Virus record (IMG/VR): IMGVR_UViG_3300048839_001047
Location: 1-26,768 of that record
Reading direction: 5' to 3' (one strand)
Origin: a virus
Length of the DNA stretch: 26,768 nucleotides
Below, piece after piece: positions 2,603 through 7,161 of this stretch (position 1 is its first letter; every line of letters starts with the position of its first letter). The notes under the pieces were generated by a model that worked only from the letters and a program-made list of their open reading frames with translations, was not told the DNA's origin and made no database searches. The position numbers were made by a program, and so were the translations under genes.

Positions 2603-2673
2603 CCTTCCCCCTCACCCTCTGGTTGTTCTGTTTTTACTTTCGCCCCCTGAGTCATCGATTAACTTGGAGAAAG

Positions 2674-2706
2674 AAAAAGGCCGGTACGTCTTGCCCGGCT
2701 TTTTTC
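2674..2706 (-). terminator. Hairpin terminator downstream of the HNH cassette (possibly bidirectional)
   Basis: AAAAAGGCCGG (2674-2684) faces CCGGCTTTTTT (2695-2705) across a 10-base loop, so both strands have a GC stem followed by a T-run. The sixth pair is G-U read on the plus strand but A-C on the minus strand. The only nearby upstream transcription is the minus-strand HNH/187-aa unit ending at 2968, so the minus strand is the likely user. It also insulates the zinc-ribbon gene. Confidence 0.7.
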
Positions 2707-2753
2707 TTTCCCATATCTCACCTTGCCTTACTCCGCCTTGTAATATATCCCTG

Positions 2754-2823
2754 CCGCGCCGAGCCGAGCCGCGCCCGACCTGACCTAACCTTACCGCGCC
2801 GAGCCGTACCGTACCGGACCATG
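2754..2823. repeat. Period-5 (CCNNN) array A
   Basis: Fourteen consecutive pentamers start with CC in strict 5-base phase, for example CCGCG, CCGAG, CCTGA, CCTAA, CCTTA, CCGTA, ending with CCATG. The three other positions vary, so it is not a simple microsatellite. It does not code in this phase and lies 3' of the minus-strand HNH/187-aa genes. A shorter out-of-phase run (CCTTG CCTTA CTCCG CCTTG) precedes it at 2721-2740. Confidence 0.8.
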
Positions 2824-2827
2824 AGTT

Positions 2828-2854
2828 TAATGGTAGCCGAAATGGCTACCATTA
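2828..2854. other. 11-bp hairpin between the two period-5 arrays
   Basis: AATGGTAGCC (2829-2838) pairs perfectly with GGCTACCATT (2844-2853) around GAAAT, and one more T-A pair closes at 2828/2854. Neither side has a T-run, so it is a weak terminator candidate at best; it could be an RNA processing or protein-binding site. Confidence 0.6.
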
Positions 2855-2856
2855 CA

Positions 2857-2926
2857 CCAAGCCACGCCACACTGCACCGCACCTTGCCTTGCCTATCCCA
2901 GTCTAGCCGCGTCGCGCCGCTCCATG
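2857..2926. repeat. Period-5 (CCNNN) array B
   Basis: A second run of fourteen pentamers, the same count as array A and also ending in CCATG. Eleven of them begin with CC (CCAAG, CCACG, CCACA, CCGCA, CCTTG twice, CCTAT, CCCAG, CCGCG, CCGCT, CCATG); the exceptions are CTGCA, TCTAG and TCGCG. It ends 42 bases from the stop of the 187-residue protein gene. Confidence 0.75.
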
Positions 2927-2967
2927 AATTTAAATGGGGCAGCAAAATTGACTACCCGATTCACAAA

Positions 2968-3531
2968 CTACGCCACCACCTCGAACCGCCCAAACTGCGG
3001 ACGCCAGTCACCCAGGCCAATAATACTGCCTGCGATCTCGAACCATTCGTCCAGTTGGCGCTCGTTCACAAGCTCATCATCATACGTTACCTTGACTTTT
3101 GCCTGCCATTCCTCGAAAATGGGGTGTGTTCGTGCTACTCTAGCGCGTCCAACCACTACAATGGCCCGGTGACGAAACGATTCCTCTTCCCAAAGTGCAT
3201 CGGCGTCTGTCGGGCCATTGTATTCCAGTACAGCATTATTGAGGATGAACACCCCCGCTTCCGCTTGCTTCCCCTCCTTGCGCTTCCGAGCCGCACGGAT
3301 CAACATGCCGCGCACGTTTTGCGGCGGAATCACCGGGCCTGACTTGCCCATGTACAGGCCGCCCAAGAACTCAAGCCGTGCCATTTCTTCGTAATCCGCA
3401 TCAGTCTTGGCTCGCTTCCCGGAGGTAGCTTTCATAGCTTTTGCGAACACGTTGGCCGGATCGGCCATTTGGCCGTTGTGCATCAACATCGGGCACACTG
3501 ATTTCAATGTGTACTCTTTTTCTTTCAACAT
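2968..3531 (-). CDS. Conserved phage-type hypothetical protein, 187 aa, partner of the HNH gene
   Basis: ATG at 3531 has a good AAGGAGAG ribosome binding site 7 bases upstream, which fixes the start even though it lies inside the HNH frame. The pattern is TLKSVCPMLMHN near the N-terminus, a GKRAKTDADYEE region, PPQNVRGMLIRAARK, and a C-terminal (R)THPIFEEWQAKVKV then IGLGDWRPQFGRFEV. From memory this resembles a family of unnamed proteins recurrent in phage and metagenomic contigs; the alternating beta-strands and the glycine/arginine-rich C-terminus are loosely reminiscent of RAMP-like folds, but I cannot show that. No catalytic motif was identified. It is translated from the same leader transcript as the HNH gene and ends near array B. 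Confidence 0.8.
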   Translation of the reverse strand: MLKEKEYTLKSVCPMLMHNGQMADPANVFAKAMKATSGKRAKTDADYEEMARLEFLGGLYMGKSGPVIPPQNVRGMLIRAARKRKEGKQAEAGVFILNNAVLEYNGPTDADALWEEESFRHRAIVVVGRARVARTHPIFEEWQAKVKVTYDDELVNERQLDEWFEIAGSIIGLGDWRPQFGRFEVVA

Positions 3532-3808
3532 GATTTAACTCTCCTTCAGGCTCGATTGCCTTTACCTTGTATTGACGCTGGCTGTAACGTCGCCCGCGAA
3601 TTACGTTCGTGATTGCCTTGTGGCACTCCGCGCAAAGGGTGATCAAGTCTTCCATAGGCTCATCTCCGAAATGTTCATAACTGACATGATGGCATTCTAG
3701 CTGCTCTGTGCCGCCACATGTGCGACAGCGGCTTTTGTCCATCATCCTGCGCTCTTCTCGTTTCCGATACCACTCGGCGCTGCTAATGTACTTGCTGTAA
3801 CCTTTCAT
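3401..3808 (-). CDS. HNH endonuclease
   Basis: Residues ~5-65 form a compact HNH domain: EWYRKREERRMMDKSRC, C-x2-C-G (CRTCGG), LECHHVSYEHFGDEP, LITLCAECHKAI. The two Cys pairs make a zinc knuckle, the HH pair supplies the catalytic histidine and the last His completes the motif. The family nicks or cuts DNA and includes phage packaging nucleases and homing enzymes; this copy lies far from the terminase genes, so homing or defence is as likely as packaging. No good ribosome binding site is adjacent to the ATG; GAGGTGA lies 16 bases away, with a two-codon frame (ATG GAT TGA) in between. The C-terminal ~43 codons overlap the next gene by 131 bases, which is unusually long. Confidence 0.85.
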   Translation of the reverse strand: MKGYSKYISSAEWYRKREERRMMDKSRCRTCGGTEQLECHHVSYEHFGDEPMEDLITLCAECHKAITNVIRGRRYSQRQYKVKAIEPEGELNHVERKRVHIEISVPDVDAQRPNGRSGQRVRKSYESYLREASQD

Positions 3809-3842
3809 CGTTTCAATCCATTGTCACCTCAATTTTTACTAT

Positions 3843-3907
3843 CCTTGCCCAGGCAAGCCACGCCGGGCCTTGCCCAGCATCGCCCCGTCAGGCCTCACCC
3901 CGCCTTG
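3843..3907. repeat. Period-5 (CCNNN) array C
   Basis: Thirteen pentamers in phase (CCTTG, CCCAG, GCAAG, CCACG, CCGGG, CCTTG, CCCAG, CATCG, CCCCG, TCAGG, CCTCA, CCCCG, CCTTG), ten beginning CC. It lies in the leader between the structured RNA and the HNH start, so it is transcribed on the minus strand as a G-rich NNNGG series. With arrays A and B it brackets the two-gene cassette. Confidence 0.65.
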
Positions 3908-3912
3908 AACGT

Positions 3913-4053
3913 AAAACAGCCACCCTTTACTTCGTAAGTTGTTGAGGCCTACGGCGGTGGTCCCGCTCAAGCAAAGGGTGGCTGTTTTGCCACGAAGTAT
4001 TAAGTTTTCATTCAGCGGGTACAAAAACACCACCGCATTCCGTAAGCCTCAAC
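3913..4053 (-). ncRNA. Structured leader or small RNA with long hairpin and potential 16-bp pseudoknot
   Basis: Read on the minus strand from 4053, GTTGAGGCTTACGG (4053-4040) pairs with CCGTAGGCCTCAAC (3954-3941), with one U-G wobble that would be an A-C mismatch on the plus strand. The helix continues past one-sided bulges with CGGTGGT/ACCACCG (4035-4029 with 3961-3955) and CCCGCT/AGCGGG (4019-4014 with 3967-3962). The apical loop holds AAAACAGCCACCCTTT (3988-3973), which is perfectly complementary to AAAGGGTGGCTGTTTT (3928-3913) just 3' of the main helix, giving an H-type pseudoknot. The loop can alternatively fold a GTGGC/GCCAC hairpin (3993-3978). The 3' arm ends in UUUU, so it might also act as a terminator. 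The predicted +1 coincides with the first base of the helix. No known RNA family was recognised. Confidence 0.6.
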
Positions 4054-4060
4054 AAAAATA

Positions 4061-4088
4061 ATTATAGCACGGCCGTTCCAGTAGTCAA
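4061..4088 (-). promoter_or_regulatory. Near-consensus sigma70-type promoter of the structured RNA / HNH unit
   Basis: On the minus strand TTGACT (4088-4083), a 16-base spacer and a perfect TATAAT (4066-4061) are followed 7 bases later by G at 4053, the first base of the long helix. The spacer contains an ACGGCCGT octamer. This is one of the best promoter matches in the window. Confidence 0.8.
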
Positions 4089-6034: not shown

Positions 6035-6841
6035 ATGGCGAAAATCTACGCAGTAATGAACAGAAAAGGCGGCACCGGCAAGACGACGACGGCGATTGCG
6101 TTGGCGCAAGGGCTGGCCCGCCGCCGCTACGAGGAAGGATACACCGGTGATACGGCCGTGCTGCTGGTGGACCTTGACCCGCAAGGGCACGTTGCCGGTT
6201 CGCTCGACCTGGACACCGGCGGCCGCTGCCTGAGCCAGTTCTTTCTTGACCGATCCAACTATGGGCGCGTGCTTATGCGCGCCGCCAACGAAAGCCATGC
6301 GCGGCGTGGCATGTGGGTTGTTCCAGCTACCGATAACTTGACCGAGGCGAAGCGCGCCTTGATTGTGAATGGAAAGATCGACGACGCGCTGGAATGGGCA
6401 CTTGGCGAAACGCGCAAGCTCTTTGAGTACATCGTGCTCGATTGCCCGCCGACGCTGGACTTCCTTCAGACGGCCGTCTATCGCTTTGCCGATCTCGCCG
6501 TCGTGCCGGTACGTGCCGACTACCTGTCGCTCAATGGCGCAATGCAGCACACGCGCGACATCGTGGCCGCGCAGCAAGCGGGCAGCAAGATCGCGATCAA
6601 GGCGCTTGTCCCGACCTTCTTCGACACGCGGATCAACCAATGCAGCGCAGTGGTGAGCAGACTAATCGAGGTGTACGGCCGTGACAAGGTGACAGTACCG
6701 ATTCCGAGCACGATCCGCGTGGCCGAAGCACCGGAGTATGGCATGACAGTATTCGAATACGCCGAAAGCCGGAGCAGCGACAACATGGCCCAGATCGCGG
6801 CAATGGCCTACAACAGGGTAGTAGAGAGGGTGATGATATGA
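6035..6841 (+). CDS. parA: ParA-family partition ATPase
   Basis: ATG at 6035 follows GGGAG; the open frame extends 26 codons upstream but without a ribosome site and across the operator. The 268-residue protein starts directly with the deviant Walker A motif KGGTGKTT (residues 11-18), followed by the A' motif VLLVDLDPQG, Walker B-like YIVLDCPP and a VVPVRADYLSLNGAMQ segment. It lacks the N-terminal HTH of large P1-type ParA, so it resembles type Ib (ParF-like) ATPases that segregate plasmids by nucleoid-associated ATP cycling. It overlaps the next gene by four bases (ATGA). The presence of a partition ATPase implies extrachromosomal maintenance. Confidence 0.92.
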   Translation: MAKIYAVMNRKGGTGKTTTAIALAQGLARRRYEEGYTGDTAVLLVDLDPQGHVAGSLDLDTGGRCLSQFFLDRSNYGRVLMRAANESHARRGMWVVPATDNLTEAKRALIVNGKIDDALEWALGETRKLFEYIVLDCPPTLDFLQTAVYRFADLAVVPVRADYLSLNGAMQHTRDIVAAQQAGSKIAIKALVPTFFDTRINQCSAVVSRLIEVYGRDKVTVPIPSTIRVAEAPEYGMTVFEYAESRSSDNMAQIAAMAYNRVVERVMI

Positions 6842-7161
6842 GCAGTGACGACATTGATAACGCATTGGGCAGCATTGCAAACCGAGCGCCAGGCTCACGC
6901 ATCGGCAAGGAAAAGGTAGAGCAGCCGGTCGCGCGGCAGGCGACGCGCACGACCGAGAAAACCATCGTCTATTCTGTGCGCCTACCGGAAGCATTCGCTG
7001 CGCACACCCGGCAGATCGCGAAGCAGTTCGGGATCAGCGAGGCCGAGGCGAAAAGGGCGATCATCTATCGGGGAGTGCAGGCGTACATGATTGACAAAGA
7101 GCAGCTCGAAACCGAGTTCACCACCAAAGTCGTAGCAGTACGGCCCAGCGATCTAGCCTAA
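6838..7161 (+). CDS. Small DNA-binding partition partner, ribbon-helix-helix type
   Basis: This 107-residue protein is translationally coupled to parA through an ATGA overlap. Residues 1-40 are polar and probably disordered. Residues ~42-80 (KTIVYSVRLPEAF, then HTRQIAKQFGISEAEAKRAI) have the strand-helix-helix pattern of ribbon-helix-helix proteins. This matches ParG/Omega-type partners, whose flexible tail stimulates the ParF/ParA ATPase while the RHH dimer binds the centromere and represses the operon. It is therefore the best candidate to bind the GTATAC palindromes. The RHH call is from pattern, not from alignment. Confidence 0.75.
   Translation: MSSDDIDNALGSIANRAPGSRIGKEKVEQPVARQATRTTEKTIVYSVRLPEAFAAHTRQIAKQFGISEAEAKRAIIYRGVQAYMIDKEQLETEFTTKVVAVRPSDLA

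What the first reader, a model, noticed from the sequence alone, without database searches (positions are those of the whole stretch)
2754..3907. Three period-5 (CCNNN) arrays bracket the HNH / 187-aa gene pair
Arrays A (14 units), B (14 units, mostly CC) and C (13 units) share a strict 5-base phase with CC fixed and other bases variable. A and B lie just downstream and C just upstream of the two genes; A and B both end with CCATG. Variation at three of five positions argues against ordinary slippage. This looks like a selected spacing, for example repeated contacts by a protein or RNA, or the flanks of a mobile cassette.
Basis: seen in the sequence. Interest (0 to 1): 0.75.

Follow-up and report, generated by a model that had tools for sequence, protein, structure and literature searches.

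The report
Phage VIPR guide-RNA locus with HNH nuclease
The odd five-base arrays are three guide-RNA genes of a recently described phage system (VIPR) that uses a Cas7-like protein to find DNA; here the partner gene is an HNH nuclease, so this phage probably marks rival DNA for cutting, although no target was found.

Summary
The arrays are real (13, 10 and 10 CC units of 13; the best windows elsewhere have 6). On the minus strand, the strand of both genes, they read YNNGG repeated. The 187-aa protein is Vipr: it matches the solved SUSP1 Vipr (PDB 36pp, E 1e-23), its model (pLDDT 96.8) best matches Csm3/Cas7 subunits, and it is phrog_4652. Of 120 viral contigs selected only by the array pattern, 82 carry a Vipr homologue, and all 175 arrays there have GG on the vipr coding strand. 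The locus is therefore a VIPR system (PMC13142463): promoter, one upstream vrRNA (C), HNH accessory gene, vipr, two downstream vrRNAs (B, A), terminator. The HNH gene overlaps the vipr start out of frame; this arrangement defines one Vipr lineage (26 of 102 proteins) found in phages, Chloroflexota, Alphaproteobacteria and others. The most likely function is RNA-guided recognition of competing DNA with cutting by HNH. No target was found in the collections, so recognition and cutting are inferred. This is a new member of a known kind. What adds interest: a nuclease-bearing VIPR on a phage (the preprint links nuclease types to host defence), and tRNA-like elements behind vrRNA arrays in some relatives.

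The parts
4061..4088 (-). sigma-70-like promoter TTGACT-16-TATAAT with an extended -10 TG
   Evidence: 11 of 12 consensus positions; consensus match only, start site not shown
3913..4055 (-). leader with two interleaved inverted repeats (3913-3932/3969-3988 and 3939-3954/4040-4055)
   Evidence: RNA fold z = -4.4; no match in fetched loci; role unknown
3843..3907 (-). vrRNA C: 13 YNNGG-type units, 10 of them with GG, upstream of the genes
3401..3808 (-). HNH endonuclease gene (vap), overlapping the vipr start by 131 nt in another frame
   Evidence: PF01844 E 2e-5; same overlapping arrangement across one Vipr lineage; C-C/HH/D/C-CH motif conserved
2968..3531 (-). vipr gene, 187-aa Cas7/RAMP-like protein with G-rich loop GLGDWRPQFGRF
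   Evidence: PDB 36pp SUSP1 Vipr E 1.1e-23; AF2 pLDDT 96.8; Foldseek top hits Csm3/Cas7; phrog_4652 E 2e-46
2857..2926 (-). vrRNA B: 14 units, 11 with GG
2825..2857 (-). 14-bp hairpin between vrRNA B and vrRNA A (3' tail of B or a processing element)
   Evidence: z = -3.9
2749..2823 (-). vrRNA A: 15 strict YNNGG units
2669..2710 (-). terminator-like long hairpin closing the operon
   Evidence: (16-nt arms, 94% complementary); not picked up by the simple terminator scan

Best explanation
The segment 2669-4088 (minus strand) is a VIPR (Viral Interference Programmable Repeat) locus. One operon yields vrRNA C, an HNH nuclease, the Cas7-like Vipr protein, and vrRNAs B and A. Vipr protomers line up along each vrRNA, one per five bases, holding the fixed GGY. 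The two variable bases of each unit pair with DNA at every two of three target positions (the 1-nt skip rule of PMC13142463). The bound complex blocks, and with the HNH partner probably cuts, DNA of competing mobile elements. Shown here: the arrays, their strand, the Vipr homology and fold, and the conserved HNH-vipr gene overlap. Inferred from the preprint: RNA expression, the pairing rule and the target class. Inferred only: that HNH cuts the guided target.
For: Sequence match of the 187-aa protein to the solved SUSP1 Vipr (PDB 36pp), E 1.1e-23 alone and 5e-37 as a profile. Confident model with Csm3/Cas7 of CRISPR types III and VII as best fold matches. Contigs chosen only by (CCNNN)9CC carry a Vipr homologue in 82 of 120 cases, with 175 of 175 arrays in one orientation to the gene, median distance 163 nt. 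Unit composition over 269 tracts in 89 loci: position 1 is C/T 92%, positions 2-3 free, positions 4-5 G 97-98% (the tracts were selected for GG and largely for Y, so it is the freedom of positions 2-3 that is informative), matching the published YNNGG. One upstream and two downstream arrays, like the SUSP1 layout of one upstream and three downstream. The HNH gene overlapping vipr forms one lineage, 26 of 102 proteins, 4 changes on the tree against 23 for shuffled labels.
Against: No convincing target for A or B in 2.9 million viral contigs, and none for A in the genome collection or in 400 Chloroflexota genomes. The pooled skip-rule test on fetched loci showed no signal for any skip (small, unrelated target set). 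B and C contain broken GG units. The three tails are not alike, whereas the preprint reports an invariant tail. No RNA data.
Confidence: 0.93

Rival explanations
1. VIPR locus, but the HNH gene is an unrelated homing endonuclease that invaded next to vipr and plays no part in guided DNA recognition.
For: HNH genes are common selfish genes in phages; similar free-standing HNH proteins occur in Streptomyces phages and far from vipr in other loci.
Against: The out-of-frame overlap with vipr (about 75-190 nt in most cases) is kept in one Vipr lineage across viruses and at least five bacterial phyla. The metal-binding and HH motifs are conserved. The preprint reports nuclease vap genes.
Confidence: 0.12
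2. The arrays are binding sites in DNA (operator or iteron arrays) or slippage products, not RNA genes.
For: Periodic sites flank the genes; GC-rich short repeats can arise by slippage.
Against: Strict strand bias relative to vipr, 175 of 175; hypervariable NN with fixed GG is not slippage; the neighbour is an RNA-guided-type RAMP protein.
Confidence: 0.03
3. A decayed VIPR: array A works, B and C are degenerating remnants.
For: The fixed dinucleotide is broken in 3 of 14 and 3 of 13 units of B and C; tails differ; no target found.
Against: Both genes are intact with conserved motifs; promoter-like and terminator-like sites bracket the unit; relatives also carry imperfect units.
Confidence: 0.15

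Closest known systems
Type II VIPR of Escherichia phage SUSP1 (PMC13142463; PDB 36pp)
   Same: Vipr homologue along nearly its full length; YNNGG vrRNAs; one upstream and several downstream vrRNAs; phage-borne.
   Different: Partner is an HNH nuclease upstream of and overlapping vipr, not a DNA-binding protein; tails not conserved between the three arrays.
Nuclease-bearing VIPR types (III and V of PMC13142463)
   Same: Vipr plus a predicted nuclease accessory gene.
   Different: Those are described as enriched in host defence islands; this one lies in a phage record with terminase and portal genes. The exact type could not be assigned because the supplement was not readable here.
Class 1 CRISPR Cas7/Csm3 effectors
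   Same: Fold and filament logic.
   Different: No CRISPR array, single RAMP, five-base fixed-motif guide instead of contiguous spacer.
TIGR-Tas (PMC12045711)
   Same: Phage-borne RNA-guided DNA targeting; some members carry HNH (own knowledge).
   Different: Different protein (a Cas7-like RAMP here) and different array; considered on general knowledge only, not compared.

Membership tests
VIPR | Vipr protein: small single-domain RAMP with G-rich loop | tested here: met
VIPR | 9-16 tandem YNNGG repeats with hypervariable NN | tested here: met
   15, 14 and 13 units; A strict, B and C with 3 broken GG each
VIPR | Arrays in the long intergenic stretches flanking vipr, GG on its coding strand | tested here: met
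   window layout, and 175 of 175 arrays in relatives
VIPR | Accessory vap gene acting on DNA | tested here: met
   HNH gene, overlapping and lineage-specific; activity on DNA not tested
VIPR | Invariant structured 3' tail | tested here: inconclusive
   B has a 14-bp hairpin, A runs into a terminator-like hairpin, C runs into the HNH gene; no shared tail seen
VIPR | Targets readable by the 1-nt skip rule | tested here: inconclusive
   no target found for A or B; C searched only locally
VIPR | vrRNA expressed and bound by Vipr | not testable with these tools
   needs RNA sequencing and pull-down
VIPR type II | vap encodes a predicted DNA-binding protein | tested here: not met
   HNH nuclease instead; Vipr lies in another lineage than phages L192 and L193
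VIPR type III or V | predicted nuclease vap | tested here: met
   HNH; but the preprint's main text names neither HNH nor gene order, so the type stays open
CRISPR-Cas class 1 | CRISPR array and multi-gene cas locus | tested here: not met
   only two genes and pentanucleotide arrays

The most novel reading that the evidence does not exclude
A lineage of VIPR in which the HNH gene is welded to vipr by a conserved gene overlap is carried by phages (window, L028, L124, L128) as well as chromosomes. Phages would then use a compact guided nuclease, not only guided repression, against rivals, contrary to the preprint's link of nuclease VIPRs with host defence.
Probability: 0.45. Interest if true: 0.65.

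Novelty: new member of a known kind. Interest (0 to 1): 0.5.

Why it matters
VIPR was first described in a 2026 preprint as a possible ancestor of CRISPR effectors. This locus gives a compact member (two genes and three guides in about 1.4 kb) with an HNH nuclease on a phage, which is a direct test case for whether VIPR can cut DNA and who uses the cutting form. The simple array pattern also finds VIPR loci without any protein search, in 82 of 120 contigs here.

Tried and rejected
Targets: 1-nt-skip patterns of A and B (seeds of 8 to 10 units) in viral contigs, 11 units of A in genome contigs, and full A with up to 3 mismatches in 7 handled records and 400 Chloroflexota genomes. Best matches were 22 of 30 (A) and 22 of 28 (B) positions, within chance after seeding. 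Pooled skip-rule test with 264 unique tracts against 2.3 Mb (both strands) of fetched loci: no skip exceeded shuffled guides, so the rule could not be re-derived here. A Methylobacterium relative's guide against 99 genomes of its genus: nothing. Rfam search of the window and 16 loci: nothing at gathering level. Host by the octamer ACGGCCGT: none of 201 Chloroflexota genomes is as rich as the window. Considered and rejected: slippage, cassette ends, iterons.

Full report
Observation. The three arrays exist as described. A (2749-2823) has 15 strict CCNNN units, B (2857-2926) 14 units with 11 CC, and C (3843-3907) 13 units with 10 CC. They are the three best period-5 windows of the record (13, 10 and 10 of 13; next 6), and dinucleotide shuffles never exceed 8. 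Lag-5 identity is 0.72, 0.63 and 0.51 against about 0.31 in shuffles. The fifth base is a purine in 40 of 42 units, so on the minus strand, which carries both genes, the unit reads YNNGG.

What the neighbouring genes are. The 187-aa gene has no Pfam match but matches phrog_4652, of unknown function. Built from 71 sequences, its AlphaFold2 model has mean pLDDT 96.8. Foldseek's best matches in the PDB are Csm3/Cas7 subunits of CRISPR types III and VII. By sequence, the only strong PDB match is 'SUSP1 Vipr protein', 36pp, E 1.1e-23 for the single sequence and 5.2e-37 for the profile. The G-rich loop GLGDWRPQFGRF is conserved. The second gene is an HNH endonuclease that overlaps the vipr start by 131 nt in another frame.

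Literature. A full-text search found one preprint, PMC13142463. VIPR systems consist of a phage-encoded ancestral RAMP (Vipr), an accessory gene (vap), and vrRNAs of 9-16 YNNGG repeats. The dinucleotides pair with DNA at xNN spacing, and the targets are competing phages and satellites. In SUSP1 one vrRNA lies upstream and three lie downstream of the genes. This is the anatomy seen in the window.

Independent test of the link. I scanned 2.9 million viral contigs with (CCNNN)9CC alone. Of these, 82 encode a Vipr homologue, and all 175 strict arrays in them have GG on the vipr coding strand, median distance 163 nt. Over 269 tracts, unit position 1 is C or T in 92%, positions 2 and 3 are free, and positions 4 and 5 are G in 97-98% (GG and Y were part of the selection, the free middle was not). 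Conversely, most loci fetched by the Vipr protein alone carry YNNGG tracts beside it.

The HNH lineage. The HNH gene lies upstream of vipr on the same strand, in most cases overlapping its start, in 26 of 102 Vipr proteins. These fall in one part of the tree (4 changes against 23 for shuffled labels), with four rows lacking HNH inside; one of those, L127, is cut at the contig end. Members come from viral contigs, Chloroflexota (L176, 56% identity to the window), Methylobacterium, Microvirga, Bradyrhizobium, an Azospirillum plasmid, Leptolyngbya, Phycisphaerae and others. The C-C, HH, D and C-CH residues of the HNH fold are almost always kept. The window itself is a phage record, perhaps a phage-plasmid: terminase large subunit, portal, ParA-like protein, DnaA_N/replication-initiator-like protein, Sak4-like protein, RNA ligase and anti-repressor. 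HNH-VIPR relatives L028 and L128 carry terminases and L124 a tape measure protein. Nuclease VIPRs are therefore on phages too, while the preprint ties nuclease types to host defence.

Operon. A sigma-70-like promoter (4088-4061, 11 of 12 matches) precedes a leader with two interleaved inverted repeats, then C, HNH, vipr, B, a 14-bp hairpin, A, and a terminator-like hairpin (2669-2710). That one transcript carries all of this is inferred.

Mechanism. Vipr protomers presumably coat each vrRNA, one per YNNGG unit, and present the NN pairs to DNA; bound DNA is blocked and, through HNH, probably cut. The pairing rule is taken from the preprint. I could not re-derive it: no target of A or B was found, and the pooled test had no signal. 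The HNH step is inference from gene linkage.

Verdict. A new member of a known, very recently described kind.

Noticed in passing
L124:6655-6700 and 6797-6842; L123 near 2898; L122 4163-4208; L039 near 4460 and 4580; L132 near 3006; L008 near 6389 (positions on the vipr coding strand): tRNA-like elements (a TTCRANY T-loop on a 5-bp or longer stem closed by an acceptor-like stem) lie just 3' of vrRNA arrays; within 90 nt of arrays they are about 15 times more frequent than elsewhere (7 in 27 kb against 15 in 873 kb). They could recruit RNase P/Z to free the guides. The preprint's main text does not mention tRNA.
   Followed up: partly
window:3913-4055: Leader before array C holds two long interleaved inverted repeats (20 and 16 nt arms) that exclude each other or form a pseudoknot; no copy in the fetched loci.
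   Followed up: partly
window, 44 places: The palindrome ACGGCCGT occurs 44 times (0.7 expected from base composition); none of 201 Chloroflexota genomes is similarly rich, so the host lineage remains open.
   Followed up: partly
L176:3500-3800: The Chloroflexota relative has a near-invariant hairpin AAGGATGCAATCATCCTT between its vrRNA tracts, formed partly by the last CAAGG unit.
   Followed up: no
L187:801-2450: Several arrays in an Omnitrophota MAG are each followed by the same hairpin GTTGCATTCGCAAC.
   Followed up: no
window:9-371: Mrr-like restriction endonuclease fragment at the record's edge.
   Followed up: no
L002-L121, 38 loci: 38 of the 120 array contigs have no Vipr homologue in the fetched stretch; some are low-complexity C runs, some are cut at a contig end, others (such as L026, L034, L060) have good YNNGG tracts and may hold diverged Viprs or stand-alone guides.
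   Followed up: no
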